From assembly GCF_002300555.2 (NCBI RefSeq), contig NZ_NTHN02000008.1, forward strand, positions 1-64,000: a stretch of 64,000 bases of DNA, given 5' to 3'. This DNA comes from Alloyangia mangrovi. GTDB taxonomy: Bacteria; Pseudomonadota; Alphaproteobacteria; Rhodobacterales; Rhodobacteraceae. Made by a program: the position numbers and the translations under genes. Below are positions 6,248 to 47,537 of the stretch, one piece after another (within the stretch, counting starts at the first letter, position 1; each line of letters begins with the position of its first letter). Under the pieces are notes generated by a model. It worked only from the letters and a program-made list of their open reading frames with translations. It searched no databases and was not told the DNA's origin.

Positions 6248-6277
6248 CAAACTAATTTGACTCGGCGGGAGAGAGCC

Positions 6278-7672
6278 ATGGCTTCGCAAAGCTTCGACAT
6301 GATCGTCATCGGTGCAGGACCCGGGGGCTATGTCGCCGCCATCCGCGGCGCGCAGCTCGGCCTGAAGGTGGCCGTGGTGGAACGCGAGCACATGGGCGGC
6401 ATCTGCCTCAACTGGGGCTGCATTCCGACCAAGGCGCTGCTGCGCAGCTCGGAGATCTACCACTTCATGCAGCGCGCCAAGGACTACGGGCTGACCGCCG
6501 AGAAGATCGGCTACGATCTCGATGCGGTGGTCAAGCGTTCGCGCGGCGTTGCCAAGCAGCTGAACTCCGGCGTCACCCACCTGCTGAAGAAGAACAAGGT
6601 CACCGCCTTCATGGGCGAGGCGACGATCCCCGCCAAGGGCAAGGTCACCGTCAAGACCGACAAGGGCACCGAGGAGCTGACCGCGAAGAATATCGTCATC
6701 GCCACCGGCGCCCGTGCCCGCGAGCTGCCCGGGCTCGAGGCCGACGGCGATTGCGTCTGGACCTACAAGCACGCGCTGGTGCCGAGCCGCATGCCGAAGA
6801 AGCTGCTGGTCATCGGCTCGGGTGCCATCGGCATCGAGTTCGCCAGCTTCTACAACACGCTCGGCGCCGACACGACGGTGGTCGAGGTGATGGATCGCAT
6901 CCTGCCGGTGGAGGATGAGGAGATCTCGAAATTCGCCAAGAAGCAGTTCGAGAAGCAGGGCATGACCATCCGCGAGAAGACCATGGTCAAGCACCTCGAC
7001 CGCGCCAAGGGCAAGGTCACCGCGCATATCGAGCAGAACGGCAAGACCACCAAGGAAGAGTTCGACACGGTGATCTCGGCGGTCGGCATCGTCGGCAACA
7101 CCGAGGGGCTGGGCCTCGAGGCGCTCGGCGTGAAGGTCGAGCGCACCCATGTGGTGGTGGACAAGCACTGCCGCACCGGCATCGAGGGTGTCTATGCCAT
7201 CGGCGACATCGCCGGCGCGCCCTGGCTGGCACACAAGGCGTCGCATGAAGGCGTCATGGTGGCCGAGCTGATCGCCGGCGGCCACCCGCACGCAGTCGAG
7301 CCCTCGTCGATCGCCGGCTGCACCTACTGCCACCCGCAGGTTGCCTCGGTTGGCCTGACCGAGGCCAAGGCCAAGGAAGCCGGCTACAAGATCAAGGTCG
7401 GCCGCTTCCCCTTCATCGGCAACGGCAAGGCGATCGCGCTCGGCGAGCCCGAAGGCATGGTCAAGACGATCTTCGACGAGAAGACCGGCGAGCTCCTCGG
7501 GGCCCACATGGTCGGCGCGGAAGTCACCGAGCTGATCCAGGGCTACGTGGTCGGTCGCCAGCTCGAGACCACCGAGGAGGACCTGATGAACACCGTCTTC
7601 CCCCACCCGACGCTGTCGGAGATGATGCACGAAAGCGTGCTCGACGCCTACGGCCGCGCGATCCACTTCTGA
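6278..7672 (+). CDS. lpdA: Dihydrolipoyl dehydrogenase (E3)
   Basis: 464 residues, the normal length. This flavoprotein reoxidises dihydrolipoamide of 2-oxoacid dehydrogenase complexes or the glycine cleavage system, passing electrons to NAD+. The FAD site is IVIGAGPGGYVAAI near residue 10, the redox-active disulfide is GGICLNWGCIPTK (Cys43 and Cys48), the NAD site is LLVIGSGAIGIEFASF around residue 180, and the C-terminal catalytic pair lies in FPHPTLSEMMHE. I start at 6278, behind a GGGAGAG ribosome site, rather than at the in-frame ATG at 6257. The gene stands alone, with a clear promoter upstream. Its terminator is the one split by the insertion element. Confidence 0.95.
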   Translation: MASQSFDMIVIGAGPGGYVAAIRGAQLGLKVAVVEREHMGGICLNWGCIPTKALLRSSEIYHFMQRAKDYGLTAEKIGYDLDAVVKRSRGVAKQLNSGVTHLLKKNKVTAFMGEATIPAKGKVTVKTDKGTEELTAKNIVIATGARARELPGLEADGDCVWTYKHALVPSRMPKKLLVIGSGAIGIEFASFYNTLGADTTVVEVMDRILPVEDEEISKFAKKQFEKQGMTIREKTMVKHLDRAKGKVTAHIEQNGKTTKEEFDTVISAVGIVGNTEGLGLEALGVKVERTHVVVDKHCRTGIEGVYAIGDIAGAPWLAHKASHEGVMVAELIAGGHPHAVEPSSIAGCTYCHPQVASVGLTEAKAKEAGYKIKVGRFPFIGNGKAIALGEPEGMVKTIFDEKTGELLGAHMVGAEVTELIQGYVVGRQLETTEEDLMNTVFPHPTLSEMMHESVLDAYGRAIHF

Positions 7673-7696
7673 GATCGCCGCAGGCTCCAGAACTCG

Positions 7697-7706
7697 AAAG
7701 GGCGCC
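7697..7706 (+). terminator. Left half of the split lpdA terminator stem
   Basis: The ten bases AAAGGGCGCC start 24 bp after the lpdA stop. Their complement, GGCGCCC followed by T5, lies at 10707-10718 beyond the insertion element. Joined through one copy of the 7-bp duplication (CGCGAGA) they make a textbook Rho-independent terminator with a 7-base loop. Confidence 0.8.
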
Positions 7707-7713
7707 CGCGAGA
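7707..7713. repeat. Target-site duplication, left copy (7 bp)
   Basis: CGCGAGA at 7707-7713 is repeated in the same orientation at 10700-10706, immediately outside the two terminal inverted repeats. This is the expected mark of transposition with a 7-bp staggered cut. Confidence 0.9.
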
Positions 7714-7739
7714 GTGACGCATTCCGCCCGGTGGGACAC
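7714..7739 (+). repeat. Left terminal inverted repeat of the element
   Basis: 26 bp beginning GTGACGCATTCC and ending GGTGGGACAC. It pairs with 10674-10699 with two mismatches, at repeat positions 13 and 15. Confidence 0.9.
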
Positions 7740-7750
7740 AATCACAACCA

Positions 7751-7784
7751 AGCCTGTCGCGGAAACGCGGCAGGCTATTGTTTT
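7751..7784 (+). terminator. Terminator just inside the left end of the element
   Basis: An 11-bp stem (7751-7761 with 7766-7776, one G-T pair) closes on a GAAA tetraloop and is followed by ATTGTTTT. It would stop transcription arriving from lpdA and so replaces the terminator the insertion destroyed. It may also protect the element from read-through. Confidence 0.7.
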
Positions 7785-7882
7785 ACTTGAAGATTTTAAC
7801 GCCGACTGAGGTCTGCCTGGCCAAAGAAGTGCGAGAAAAAAAGTCTCGCAGAGATCTGGCAGATCCCCTCCAGAAGCTATTC

Positions 7883-7904
7883 GAGCCTTTTCGGCTCTTT
7901 TTTT
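7883..7904 (+). terminator. Second terminator in the element's left region
   Basis: GAGCC (7883-7887) pairs with GGCTC (7893-7897) around a 5-base loop and is followed directly by seven T residues. The stem is short but the T tract is ideal. The rest of the 331-bp stretch between the left repeat and the transposase start (7740-8070) shows no gene I can support, although its later part should hold the transposase promoter. Confidence 0.6.
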
Positions 7905-8070
7905 CTTCTGTTTCAGAACATAGAGCCAATATTCTTGTACCGCAAGCTTGACCGTTCTCCCCGGAGAACAAGCGGAGAATTCCGCATCGTGAGACTCCTA
8001 ACCCCGCGGAAAATCTGCTCTTTGGTCGGGAAAACGACTCGAGGCGGAACCGCGAAAGACGAGGTTCCGA

Positions 8071-10522
8071 ATGGCAAGTTTGGCGACTTTCAACTTCAAG
8101 CTGTCCCAGCTCTATCCGGGCGCGGGCAAGTATCATCTCAACACCTGCGCCAATCCGGATTGCTCCAACTTCGGGCAGCCCCTGACGGACTCGGCAGCGC
8201 GCAGGAAAACCTGGAACGAGACCCGCCCCGACCTTACGCTGGAGCAGCTTGATATCGTGGCGAAGCACGGTCCGGGCGCCTACAAGCTCTCCGGTGCGGA
8301 CAAGAAACACCGAAGGGTAAGTTGCGCCTTCCAGTATCAGCGCGCCCCTCATGTATGGGCCGATCAGCGAACAGTGCGTTGTCAGGGACATACCTCCGAG
8401 GGAAAGGTCTGCAACAGCGCCTTCTCCATCAAATCGCCGGCGCATCTCGATGAGGAAGTTGCCCGCCTCCGCAATCACAACGGCATCCTGGATGGTCCCG
8501 CATGTGGTGCCTGTGGCACCCGCTTCCTTGCTGCGCCGGAGGATTTCTCGCTGAATGGGGCACATCAGCGGATCCGCGACAGCAAGGGCAAGGCCATGAA
8601 GAAGAAGGCCACACCGAAGGCCGTCCGGGTCTTGCACAAACCCTGCAAAGGCAAGAAGGGTGCTCGGTTCTCAATCTCGCTGCCGCACGCGGGGCAAAAG
8701 ACGACGTCGGACAACCTGCGCATTCTCGGGGCGGTGCTGAACAGTGCCGGGATCACCGACATACAGCGCATGCTGGGCACCGCTGCGACCGGCAAGGCGA
8801 TCGGCTTTTCGCGGATCTATGATCGCATCGCCTGGTTGGAGGAAGTGTTTCTGGCCTACGAGCGCGAGATGCTCCGCCGTTGGCGGGAAAAAAATTGAAC
8901 GTAGCGGTCAGCAGGTAGAGCACTGCCTGAGTCACGACGATATGGTCCTCTCCGTGAACTGGGAGACGGCCACCGATCAGCGTATCACGCAGCTCAACTG
9001 CGCCATCACGGCCGACGCGAAAAGCGGGTATGTATATCGAATGGATGTCGATTTCGACCCACGCGTCAAACCCCTCGACCTCTTCAACCAGACCTACACC
9101 GACGGCCAGGGAGGTCCGAAGAACCTCTCGGAGAGCTATCCCGGCAGCAAGTTCGAAACTGCGCCAAAGTTTTCCTGGCAGAGGCCGACCGGGCGCCTAC
9201 ATGAGCCACAGTTCTTCGCTGCCTGCGTCAATGAACTGGAGGCCTTCCGTGTGCGGGCCCGACGCCGGATGCCGAAAAGGTCGAAAGCCGATGCCAACGC
9301 CAGGGACGATCTCACCGTCCGCGTGAACGGAATGAAGTAGGACATCCGCGTTATCGCCGAAGACTGTTTCGGATTCCCTGCGGACACCGAGGCCGAACGC
9401 GGCTCTTTCAAGGGCATGACCACCGACGACTTCTATACGAAGGCCGCGCACTTCGTCCTTCTGCGTGAGATGCTACCGAAGGGGCGGATTGTCCTGACGA
9501 CCGAGCTGGAAGCCACACTCCCGAATGTGATTCCGCATGTATTCGAAGAGGAGATCCGGGCGGACCGCTTCGTTTGGCTGGCGATGAAGTTCAAGAAGAA
9601 GACAACGAAGCCCGAGAAGCTCGGGAAGGTAAAAGCATACAAGAAGGACCGTCGTCAGTTCCACAACGAAGGCATGTATGCCGGTCGCTTCTCCATGGAG
9701 ACTGATGCCCGCACCGTCACAGAAGCTTATATCGCGGACCATATGGCACCTGCGCTGCGTGGAACCGGCCCGTATCCCGGGTCGAACTACCGGATCCCAG
9801 TATTTCCGAAGCTCTGGGTGTCCGCGCCGACACAAGCGAGCGGAGAGCTCGACAAGGTCGTCGGGTTCCCCATCCTCCCGCGTCACTTGCGTCGGGAGCT
9901 GAAGAACATCCCATTCGCAGGTCCGCTCGATGCCGATGTTCGTGGGGAGCTCGCGCCGTGGGTCTACAAAGCGACTCTGCAACCGGCGAGCACATTCATG
10001 AACTCGCTCCGCGAGCGCCTTAGCCTGGCGGACAGGGCAGGCAGCGGAGGCGCTCGGATCGGCGGTTCCTACGTCCAGGGCGCAATCTTCAATCCTGCGA
10101 TGCTGATCTCGATCATCAACATCTTCCGGATCAACTACAACTTCTTCGAGCCAAGGGTTTATACGCCACCATACGAAGAGATCGACGACTTCGTGAAGGC
10201 AGGAAAGCTGATGCCACGCGCCCTCCGCATCCCAGGGACAGGCGAGTATGTCCAGCTTCCGCCCCGCGCCAGGCGCTCACCACAAAAGCGCACGCCGGCA
10301 ATGCGCCACGGCATGGATACCAGAAAGCTCCGGAAGGGTGGAGGCGAAGATGTGCCTGATCTCTACCGCTTGCTCTATCGGCCTTGGCTTTATGCCGGCA
10401 CGAAGGTGGGCGCCAAGCTGGACCGGTCGTGGCAGGCTCCTGCCTCCCAAACAATAAACCTACCCGAAGACGACACCCGAGAGACACAAGTCGTGCCGAT
10501 TTCCGAGTTTTTGGGGATTTGA
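8071..10522 (+). pseudogene. Transposase of the insertion element, broken by a frameshift and an amber codon
   Basis: Three consecutive reading segments form one protein of about 816 residues. The first (8071-8898, 275 residues) carries Cys pairs suggesting zinc binding (CANPDC at residues 26-31, CQGHTSEGKVC, CGACGTRF) and a helical, DNA-binding-like stretch (NLRILGAVLNSAGITDIQRM). At an A7 run (8888-8894) the frame must shift by one base to continue as KIERSGQQVEH and on through ITADAKSGYVYRMDVDFDP. A TAG at 9338-9340 interrupts this same frame, which resumes to 10522. The later part looks like the catalytic domain, but I cannot place the acidic triad. The shift is +1, not the classical -1 programmed slip. 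Identification as transposase rests on position between inverted repeats, size and the zinc-finger plus helical layout. Confidence 0.7.
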
Positions 10523-10616
10523 GCCGACTTGTTGCCCGACGAGGAGATGACCGCGGCCCTGACCTTATCCAGCGACAGCCCATCATCTTGCAAAAAGTGC
10601 ATCTCTCACCACAAGA

Positions 10617-10647
10617 AATGGCCGCGATGGTTCTCATCGCGGCCATT
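10617..10647. terminator. Hairpin near the right end of the element
   Basis: A perfect 13-bp stem (10617-10629 with 10635-10647) closes on a 5-base loop, 94 bp after the transposase stop. There is no proper T run after it, but its position suggests the transposase terminator. The rest of 10523-10673 shows nothing else. Confidence 0.55.
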
Positions 10648-10673
10648 CGTTTCAGAGTCAGTCTCTAAGCAGA

Positions 10674-10699
10674 GTGTCCCACCGCGGGGAATGCGTCAC
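10674..10699 (-). repeat. Right terminal inverted repeat of the element
   Basis: 26 bp, the inverted counterpart of 7714-7739 with 24 of 26 positions matching. It ends GGAATGCGTCAC at the junction with the duplicated target. Confidence 0.9.
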
Positions 10700-10706
10700 C
10701 GCGAGA
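10700..10706. repeat. Target-site duplication, right copy (7 bp)
   Basis: CGCGAGA, identical and in the same orientation as 7707-7713. Before insertion it was the loop of the lpdA terminator. Confidence 0.9.
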
Positions 10707-10718
10707 GGCGCCCTTTTT
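10707..10718 (+). terminator. Right half of the split lpdA terminator, with T tract
   Basis: GGCGCCC followed by five T residues is the 3' arm and U-tract that pair with 7697-7706. It is separated from its partner by the element and can no longer act for lpdA. Confidence 0.8.
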
Positions 10719-10750
10719 CATGGGGCGGCGTTTGTCGGGGGGGGCGTCGA

Positions 10751-10887
10751 GGGGGCTCTGCCCCCGTCCGCTGCGCGGACTCCCCCGGGATATTTGGACC
10801 TAGAAGAATGGGAGCGGTCCGCGGTTCTTCTAGGCGGAAATATCCCGGGGGTGAATTCGCCGCAGGCGAAGAGGGGGCAGCGCCCCC
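10751..10887. repeat. Dispersed intergenic repeat, inverted pair
   Basis: Two copies of one GC-rich unit face each other. The forward copy (10751-10808) runs GGGGGCTCTGCCCCC, a GTCCGC-type small hairpin, CCCCCGGGATATTTGG and CCTAGAAGAA. The inverted copy (10825-10887) begins TTCTTCTAGG and ends GGGGGCAGCGCCCCC. Similar units occur at 21428-21485, 28833-28890, 36821-36967 and 47432-47537. They lie only between transcription units and look like REP/BIME-type elements. An uninterrupted G8 run precedes this copy (10737-10744). Confidence 0.75.
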
Positions 10888-21429: not shown

Positions 21430-21485
21430 CTTCTAGGTCGAAATATCCCGGGGGAGTCCGCGCAGCGGACGGGGGCAGCGCCCCC
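21428..21485. repeat. Dispersed intergenic repeat, single copy
   Basis: TTCTTCTAGG, AAATATCCCGGGGGAGTCCG and the hairpin GGGGGCAGCGCCCCC follow in the same order as in the inverted copy at 10825-10887. A related shorter motif, GCGTATTTGAAAAGAGAAGAA, sits just before the terminator at 21376-21396. Confidence 0.75.
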
Positions 21486-28832: not shown

Positions 28833-28890
28833 TTCTTCTAGGCAGAAATATCCCGGGGGAGTCCGCCGCAGGCGGGCGGGGGCAGCGCGC
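28833..28890. repeat. Dispersed intergenic repeat, degenerate copy
   Basis: TTCTTCTAGG, AGAAATATCCCGGGGGAGTC and GGGGGCAGCGCGC repeat the order of the other family members, but the last palindrome is imperfect. Confidence 0.7.
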
Positions 28891-36820: not shown

Positions 36821-36967
36821 GAGGGGCGCTGCCCCTCGCGCCGGAGGCGCGGCACCTGATGAGGCGAGGGGCGCTGCCCCTCGCGCTCCCCGGGATATTT
36901 GACCCTAGAAGAAATTGCGGGATGCCTGTCTTTCTTCTAGGTCCAAATATCCCCGCCGGAGGCAGGC
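36821..36967. repeat. Dispersed intergenic repeat, inverted pair with extra hairpin
   Basis: GAGGGGCGCTGCCCCTCGCG occurs twice (36821 and about 36866), followed by CCCCGGGATATTTGACCCTA, AGAAGAA, and then the inverted unit from about 36933 (TTCTTCTAGG, AAATATCCCCG). It is the most elaborate copy in the window. Confidence 0.7.
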
Positions 36968-47431: not shown

Positions 47432-47537
47432 AGAGGGGGCGCTGCCCCCGCGGGCCACAGGCCCGCAACAAGGGTAGTAGGGGGCTCTGCCCCCGTCGCC
47501 TGCGGCGACTCCCCCGGGATATTTGGGCCTAGAAGAA
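47432..47537. repeat. Dispersed intergenic repeat within the liu cluster
   Basis: GAGGGGGCGCTGCCCCC at 47432, a small hairpin GCGGGCC-3-GGCCCGC region, and then GGGGGCTCTGCCCCCGTCG, CCCCCGGGATATTTGGGCCT and AGAAGAA at 47480-47537. Like the copies elsewhere, it lies between coding regions, here inside one functional cluster. Confidence 0.75.

What the first reader, a model, noticed from the sequence alone, without database searches (positions are those of the whole stretch)
7697..10718. Insertion element placed exactly in the loop of the lpdA terminator
Outside the two inverted repeats the flanks read AAAGGGCGCC-CGCGAGA and CGCGAGA-GGCGCCC-T5. Taking out the element and one 7-bp copy restores a perfect Rho-independent terminator whose loop is the duplicated target. 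The element brings its own terminators just inside the left end (7751-7784 and 7883-7904), so lpdA still stops. That combination, terminator-loop target plus built-in replacement terminators, would make a nearly harmless landing strategy and may be a property of the family rather than chance.
Basis: partly seen in the sequence, partly recalled or inferred. Interest (0 to 1): 0.75.

Follow-up and report, generated by a model that had tools for sequence, protein, structure and literature searches.

The report
Transposon family targeting terminator hairpin loops
A mobile DNA element in this bacterium sits exactly in the loop of a gene's transcription-stop hairpin, and most of its relatives that could be checked do the same while carrying a stop-like hairpin of their own, which points to a little-recognised family of jumping genes that aims at gene ends and may make good the damage.

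Summary
Observation confirmed; conjecture supported as a family property. The element (7715-10698) splits the lpdA terminator; two same-genus genomes keep the intact empty site. Correction: relatives show a 9-bp duplication (loop plus closing pair), not 7. Of 39 distinct related insertions with both ends and a duplication, 34 split a hairpin centred on the duplication (33 of those 34 within 1.5 bp), against 1.0% of random sites and 1.8% of random 9-bp repeats. Five of seven scored distant homologues, one on a Bacillota plasmid, do likewise. An inward terminator-like hairpin lies near the transposase-proximal end in 28 of 35 elements, against 3.6% of interior windows; on 29 aligned ends 9 of 12 pairs change on both sides. 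The ~800-aa transposase has no significant Pfam or NCBIfam match; elements reach 13 kb with cargo. The window copy's transposase is broken. How the hairpin is recognised (cruciform DNA, palindromic sequence or transcription) is inferred, not shown. Palindrome-targeting ISs and terminator-targeting introns are known; I found no report of this family's targeting in the papers searched, though a distant relative, Tn7491, is described without it.

The parts
6257..7672 (+). lpdA, dihydrolipoyl dehydrogenase (start codon as listed by the ORF tool), the gene whose terminator is split
   Evidence: TIGR01350 571 bits
7697..7706 (+). AAA plus left arm GGGCGCC of the split terminator
   Evidence: intact in L108 and L109
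7706..7714 (.). left copy of the 9-bp target duplication CCGCGAGAG
   Evidence: 9 bp by comparison with relatives
7715..10698 (+). the element, 2984 bp
   Evidence: WIN row
7715..7739 (+). left terminal inverted repeat, TGACGCATTCCGCCCGGTGGGACAC
7751..7784 (+). inward terminator-like hairpin (stem 7751-7776) with T-rich tail, element nt 37-62; counterpart in relatives covaries
7883..7904 (+). second inward terminator-like hairpin with seven T; conservation not tested
8071..8898 (+). transposase N-terminal piece (residues 1-275 of the family profile), ends at an early stop
8891..9340 (+). transposase middle piece in another frame, ends at an in-frame TAG
9341..10522 (+). transposase C-terminal piece, same frame as the middle piece
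10618..10646 (-). hairpin reading inward from the right end, terminator-like
10674..10698 (-). right terminal inverted repeat
10699..10707 (.). right copy of the 9-bp target duplication
10707..10718 (+). right arm GGCGCCC and T5 of the split terminator

Best explanation
The element is a decayed member of a transposon family with a large (~800 aa) transposase, most likely of the DDE kind, that aims at the dyad centre of intrinsic transcription terminators. Shown by sequence: the ends, the 9-bp duplication centred on the hairpin, the intact empty sites, the repeated use of hairpins in copies across Rhodobacteraceae and in distant homologues, and a conserved covarying hairpin with a T-rich tail just inside the transposase-proximal end. 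Inferred: the transposase complex recognises the palindrome, most likely as DNA (an extruded hairpin or a symmetric duplex), and joins the two element ends at points 9 bp apart, symmetric about the dyad, so that gap repair duplicates loop plus closing pair or pairs. This destroys the terminator. The element's own inward hairpins then end incoming transcription. That protects the host gene's 3' end, keeps read-through out of the transposase gene, and makes gene ends cheap landing places. Some elements carry cargo (restriction-modification, a fatty-acid oxidation cluster, efflux).
For: Empty sites. 34 of 39 insertions score 8 or more for a palindrome at the duplication centre, against 0.98% of 30,000 random windows from the same loci, 1.8% of 2,162 random 9-bp direct repeats and 18.6% of 1,482 mismatched left/right halves; exact-duplication subset 27 of 29; dyad offset sd 0.84 bp. 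An A- or T-run of 4 or more within 22 nt in 37 of 39, random 9.7%. No two of the 39 sites share flanks. The same 13.23-kb element lies at three unrelated hairpins in three Aliiroseovarius genomes (L207, L209, L210), so it has moved. The dyad is the better fixed reference (sd 0.79 bp, n 28) than the inner edge of the A-tract (1.85, n 21) or T-tract (1.62, n 25). Inward terminator-like site in 28 of 35 left ends, 18 of 35 right ends, 3.6% of 2,000 interior windows; 94.8% of cells paired and 9 of 12 pairs with both-side changes, covariation 0.531 against 0.187 shuffled. Distant homologues by profile comparison (probability 100, E 7.5e-44); 5 of 7 scored sit in hairpins.
Against: 5 of 39 copies score below 8 (L036 4, L042 7, L045 3, L090 2, L095 3); L036 and L090 have exact duplications, so the preference is not absolute. 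Distant L247 and L250 score 3. Mismatched halves score 8 or more in 18.6%, so flanks share a half-site consensus as well as pairing. 7 of 35 elements lack a terminator-like site within 360 nt of the left end, and 17 of 35 at the right end. The left-end alignment left out 6 of 35 ends (4 with no or a degraded hairpin, 2 near-copies), which favours the structure, and a conserved core (CCTGYCG/CGGCAGG) could be a protein site. The catalytic triad of the distant group (D238, D394, E536 of L237, by inspection) aligns with D289, E478 and A656 of L063, so the third acid of this group is not located. Both fold searches are inconclusive. No transcription or transposition data.
Confidence: 0.85

Rival explanations
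1. Survivorship: insertions are unselective, and those in terminators between genes are the ones that persist.
For: Terminators lie between genes, where insertions cost least (general knowledge).
Against: Selection for harmless sites cannot place the 9-bp duplication within 1.5 bp of the dyad in 33 of 34 hairpins; the same element in three genomes chose three unrelated hairpins.
Confidence: 0.03
2. Sequence recognition: a symmetric transposase complex reads a degenerate half-site (A-rich, then G/C-rich, repeated inverted), and terminators are hit because they contain it twice. Hairpin formation plays no part.
For: Position frequencies show an A/GC/N/GC/T pattern of up to 1.3 bits per position; mismatched halves from different sites already score 8 or more in 18.6%.
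Against: Pairing within a site far exceeds pairing between sites (34 of 39 against 18.6%); the dyad is held more tightly than the A- or T-tract edges. Natural terminators are palindromic anyway, so this does not exclude it.
Confidence: 0.27
3. Transcription-coupled targeting: the transposase meets the terminator as a nascent RNA hairpin, a paused polymerase or single-stranded DNA in the bubble.
For: Nearly all targets carry an A- or T-run beside the stem, 37 of 39; group IIC introns are a precedent for terminator stem-loops as targets (PMC7923331, passages).
Against: No orientation bias relative to the longer A/T run (13, 17 and 5 of 35) and both strands are joined symmetrically about the dyad. 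Bidirectional terminators weaken that test.
Confidence: 0.17
4. The inner hairpin is not a replacement terminator but a transposase binding site, or an RNA structure that keeps read-through transcripts from making transposase.
For: Its core CCTGYCG/CGGCAGG is conserved in sequence. Protection from outside transcription by terminal hairpins is known for other ISs (recalled, no call).
Against: Outer and inner pairs covary (9 of 12 with both-side changes) and a T-rich tail follows in the 28 of 35 that pass the terminator criteria. These functions need not exclude each other.
Confidence: 0.3
5. The flanking inverted repeat belongs to the element (long variable ends), not to the target.
For: Every split hairpin looks at first like an extension of the terminal repeats.
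Against: The arms differ from copy to copy and are present without the element at lpdA (L108, L109) and at the L207 site (L265).
Confidence: 0.01

Closest known systems
Tn7491, the 3.3-kb dfrG transposon (PMC10763498, passages seen)
   Same: 9-bp duplication. Pontibacillus L248, in alignment A3 which matches this family, has ends close to those printed for Tn7491 (18 of 22 by eye), and its transposase is 55% identical to the protein beside dfrG on Enterococcus plasmids. The paper places a second copy between convergent genes.
   Different: Proteins only about 19% identical over the profile alignment. The full-text count for 'terminator' in that paper is 0 (listing). That the protein in L249 is the Tn7491 transposase is inferred. 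The ends of L249 were not found and its target was not examined.
IS1272 (IS1182 family by recall), stem-loop replacing transposition (PMC5678879, passages seen)
   Same: Target is an inverted repeat or stem-loop irrespective of its sequence; the authors' model even allows, as an untested branch, duplication of the loop only.
   Different: IS1272 deletes the target hairpin and makes no duplication; its targets are stem-loops, and the word terminator does not occur in the text searched.
REP/palindromic-unit ISs: IS1397, ISKpn1, IS621, ISRm22 (PMC1525189, passages seen)
   Same: Insertion into extragenic palindromes; ISRm22 at the palindromy axis.
   Different: Targets are repeats of one sequence family (REP/PU), not terminators of unrelated sequence; other transposase families.
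Group IIC introns (PMC7923331, passages seen)
   Same: Target next to Rho-independent terminator stem-loops.
   Different: Retroelements that insert downstream of the stem, not in its loop; no DNA transposase, no duplication (last point recalled).
IS1 family
   Same: Distant homologues match the IS1 zinc-binding region and helix-turn-helix (NCBIfam transpos_IS1, E 1e-7 to 1e-10 in three proteins); IS1 duplications are about 9 bp (recalled).
   Different: Match is partial and below cut-off (41.6, 34.5 and 32 bits against 100); the window group has no such match; much larger protein.

Membership tests
IS1 family | whole-protein match above the curated NCBIfam cut-off | tested here: not met
   window pieces none; 18 relatives none meaningful; distant homologues 32-41.6 bits against 100
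IS1 family | small element with InsA/InsB arrangement (recalled) | tested here: not met
   elements 1.2-13.2 kb; intact relatives have one ~800-aa frame
IS256 / Mutator-type DDE | fold match to ISCth4 transposase | tested here: inconclusive
   best hit of the full model, E 0.019, TM 0.11/0.19; core model gives nothing below E 0.2
DDE transposases | conserved D, D, E triad | tested here: inconclusive
   D238, D394, E536 invariant in the 10 distant homologues (roles by inspection); third position is A in the window group
Tn7491-like superfamily (distant group A3) | homologous transposase | tested here: met
   hhalign probability 100, E 7.5e-44, 539 columns, 19% identity
Tn7491-like superfamily (distant group A3) | 9-bp target duplication | tested here: met
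   29 of 39 exact; distant copies: the best pair has 9 bp in L244, L248, L250, L252, L254 and 10 bp in L247, L253, L255
IS1272-type hairpin replacement | target hairpin removed, no duplication | tested here: not met
   arms kept and 9 bp duplicated
REP/PU-targeting ISs | targets belong to one repeat family | tested here: not met
   no two of 39 sites share flanks
Intrinsic-terminator targeting (function) | GC stem-loop with T-tract at the insertion centre | tested here: met
   34 of 39 stems; A/T run of 4 or more in 37 of 39
Intrinsic-terminator targeting (function) | targets terminate transcription in the cell | not testable with these tools
   no transcript data

The most novel reading that the evidence does not exclude
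A cross-phylum superfamily of cargo-carrying transposons senses terminators by structure and not by sequence: the transposase docks on the extruded hairpin (or on the transcription complex halted there), cuts symmetrically across the loop, and swaps the host's terminator for one carried in its own end, so that insertion is transcriptionally near-neutral. Structure-guided targeting with built-in repair of the target's function would be a new principle of target choice for DNA transposons and may underlie the spread of elements such as Tn7491.
Probability: 0.35. Interest if true: 0.93.

Novelty: new variant of a known kind. Interest (0 to 1): 0.82.

Why it matters
Targeting of safe sites is a central question for mobile DNA. 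Here a family with no significant Pfam or NCBIfam match appears to use a feature that every genome has in hundreds of copies (terminators, general knowledge), independent of sequence, with base-pair precision, and brings a hairpin that could replace what it breaks. It would explain how multi-gene cargo (restriction-modification systems, a fatty-acid oxidation cluster) enters genomes with little harm; it gives a testable case of DNA or RNA structure as a transposition target; and it may offer an insertion tool directed to gene ends. A distant relative, Tn7491, already moves a resistance gene among Gram-positive bacteria.

Tried and rejected
Led nowhere: window transposase pieces in plasmids (no match) and viral contigs (no relative); Rfam on 7600-10800 (none); PDB by sequence (none); Foldseek with the full and core models (no hit at E 0.001 or better); PHROGs (one weak transposase hit, 8e-6, to the distant L237 only); a class-level search around G548 (5 of 78 genomes); homologues of the L209 site (L268, L269) and the partial match of L207's flank in G427 did not align across the site and are not used. 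Literature searches cover open-licence PubMed Central only; ISfinder was not available.

Considered and dropped: my first impression that the T-tract always lies to the right of the element (note) was wrong; one search shows no bias. The 7-bp duplication was replaced by 9 bp. An early one-strand score gave 32 of 39 at 8 or more and 28 of 39 when turned to the transposase strand, because G-T pairs count on one strand only; the final figure, 34 of 39, scores both strands for sites and controls alike.

Rows not counted among the 39: one search scanned 113 locus records (L035-L106, L187-L226, first 20 kb of the window; some records duplicate each other) and kept pairs of ends 0.7-16 kb apart with at most 2 mismatches in the 9-bp repeat: 47 pairs, 39 distinct. 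Loci with both ends but no such repeat were left out, e.g. L056, L061, L049, L080, L039/L069; so were single ends. Four elements without a recognisable transposase (L208, L218, L221, L222) are outside the counts of 35. Of 12 distant loci, ends were found in 8; 7 of these were scored.
Full report
WHAT IS THERE. The window holds one copy of a 2,984-bp element at 7715-10698 downstream of lpdA. Its transposase is in three pieces: 8071-8898, then another frame up to a TAG at 9340, then 9341-10522. Outside the element lie the two halves of a perfect GC stem with AAA before and T5 after. Of 19 same-genus relatives read at this place, two (L108, L109) carry the uninterrupted hairpin with the same loop and four more carry the same stem with other loops; L108 continues into the window's right flank. 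The terminator folds at -20.6 kcal/mol when empty, while neither junction folds better than shuffled sequence.

THE DUPLICATION IS 9 BP. CGCGAGA is flanked by C and G on both sides, so the repeat can be read as CCGCGAGAG. Relatives with end TGACGC show an exact 9-bp repeat in 29 of 39 cases. The cut therefore spans the 7-nt loop and its closing pair.

RELATIVES. The three pieces have no Pfam or NCBIfam match. A family-level genome search with the C-terminal piece hit 18 of 394 genomes, some with a single open frame of about 830 aa. An alignment of four brought 52 loci from genome contigs, named records being mostly Rhodobacteraceae. Some of these single-end hits may be chance: the reversed control pattern hit 2 of 394 genomes, and gave 9 matches in 8 of 41 genomes.

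TARGETS. One search scanned 113 locus records and kept 39 distinct insertions with two ends and a 9-bp repeat (at most two mismatches). After joining the flanks, 34 of 39 score 8 or more for a palindrome at the repeat's centre, 35 score 6 or more. Controls: random windows in the same loci 0.98% and 7.5% (n 30,000); random 9-bp direct repeats 1.2-13.5 kb apart 1.8% and 8.7% (n 2,162); mismatched halves 18.6% and 47.9% (n 1,482). For the exact repeats it is 27 of 29. The dyad lies within 1.5 bp of the centre in 33 of 34. An A- or T-run of four or more lies within 22 nt in 37 of 39 (random 9.7%). No two sites share flanks. Exceptions: L036, L042 (score 7), L045, L090, L095. There is no orientation preference.

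MOVEMENT. L207, L209 and L210, from three Aliiroseovarius genomes, are elements of 13,229-13,231 bp; L067, L072 and L081, which overlap them, are 96-97% identical to one another. They lie at three unrelated hairpins with exact repeats. The site of L207 is empty and contiguous in G435 (L265), with the hairpin present.

BUILT-IN TERMINATORS. Reading inward from the transposase-proximal end, 28 of 35 elements have a terminator-like site within 360 nt, against 3.6% of 2,000 interior windows; in 25 of the 28 it lies between nt 30 and 65, in L207, L209 and L210 the one that passes lies at 115-138. From the other end it is 18 of 35. Twenty-nine left ends were aligned (left out: L045, L093, L095, L204 as degraded, L209 and L210 as near-copies of L207). 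In the 12-pair hairpin 94.8% of cells pair, 9 pairs change on both sides, covariation 0.531 against 0.187 in shuffles and at most 0.108 when slid. So the hairpin itself is under selection. The T-rich tail makes a terminator the likeliest role, but a binding-site role for its conserved core is not excluded.

DISTANT HOMOLOGUES. Order- and phylum-level searches gave 8 of 149 and 7 of 398 genomes, among them ~600-aa proteins from other families of the phylum. Profile comparison of the two groups: probability 100, E 7.5e-44. One of these proteins matches 131 plasmid records, mostly Enterococcus, and two Staphylococcus phage records. Ends with 9-10-bp repeats were found in 8 of 12 loci. Of 7 scored, L248 (Pontibacillus), L252, L253, L254 and L255 score 11-20; L247 (Rhizobium) and L250 (Marinobacter) score 3. 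The flanks of L244, printed but not joined, also look like terminator halves. The Gram-positive members include a protein beside dfrG; the literature describes that transposon as Tn7491 with a 9-bp duplication and no mention of terminators (passages of PMC10763498; word count in the listing).

TRANSPOSASE. Intact members have about 780-835 aa with an N-terminal Cys-rich region. AlphaFold2 gives pLDDT 69.9 and, for the core, 77.8. Foldseek's best hits of the full model are DDE transposases (ISCth4, MuA, TnsB) but at E 0.02 or worse; the core model gives nothing convincing. In the distant group D238, D394 and E536 are invariant; they align with D289, E478 and A656 here. The mechanism is therefore assigned to the DDE class by homology, with one catalytic residue unplaced.

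CARGO. Among ten cargo proteins scanned from L207, L212, L216, L217, L044 and L057: thiolase, 3-hydroxyacyl-CoA dehydrogenase and AMP-binding enzyme (L207), MmeI-type restriction-modification plus helicase (L212), AcrB-type pump (L216), type I methylase and restriction subunit (L217; its specificity subunit), MFS transporter (L044), Schlafen AlbA_2 (L057).

HOW IT WORKS. Targeting of hairpin centres is shown statistically and by two empty sites. That the signal is hairpin structure is inferred: the dyad is held more tightly (sd 0.79 bp) than the edges of the A- or T-tract (1.85, 1.62), and pairing within sites exceeds pairing between sites. Sequence half-site reading and transcription coupling remain open. 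Replacement termination is inferred from the conserved inner hairpin.

NOVELTY. Palindromes as IS targets (IS1397 and REP ISs, PMC1525189; IS1272, PMC5678879) and terminators as targets of group IIC introns (PMC7923331) are known; for these papers I saw passages only. I found no paper reporting a DNA transposon family with this habit in ten searches of open-licence papers; that is a limited search. I rate it a new variant of a known kind: a new family, with a target class, precision and built-in terminator not described together in what I could see.

Noticed in passing
window 10782-10795, 10838-10851, 21441-21454, 28846-28859, 36887-36900, 47511-47524: CCCCCGGGATATTT occurs 6 times (one with a mismatch; 0.01 expected), twice as an inverted pair just right of the element; also downstream of lpdA in relatives such as L108. 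It looks like an extragenic palindromic repeat of the genus.
   Followed up: partly
L074 3454 and 3753 (also L219): Two left ends 299 bp apart with the same 24 nt of end and 32 nt of flank printed, as if flank plus end were tandemly duplicated.
   Followed up: no
L056 3712-6584; L061 3710-6675: Two good ends without a target duplication; in L056 the outer flanks look like unrelated terminator halves, as expected after recombination between copies or an adjacent deletion.
   Followed up: no
L221 1082-2294, L222 1049-3123, L218 1001-3007, L208 999-4718: Elements with family ends but no recognisable transposase, at hairpins too: possible non-autonomous derivatives moved in trans.
   Followed up: partly
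L212 3933-8695; L217 4057-10609: Complete-looking restriction-modification genes as transposon cargo (type IIG MmeI-like; type I M, S and R).
   Followed up: partly
L063 residues 289, 478, 656 against L237 residues 238, 394, 536: The invariant third acid of the distant group (E536) aligns with alanine in the Rhodobacteraceae group although elements there have moved.
   Followed up: partly
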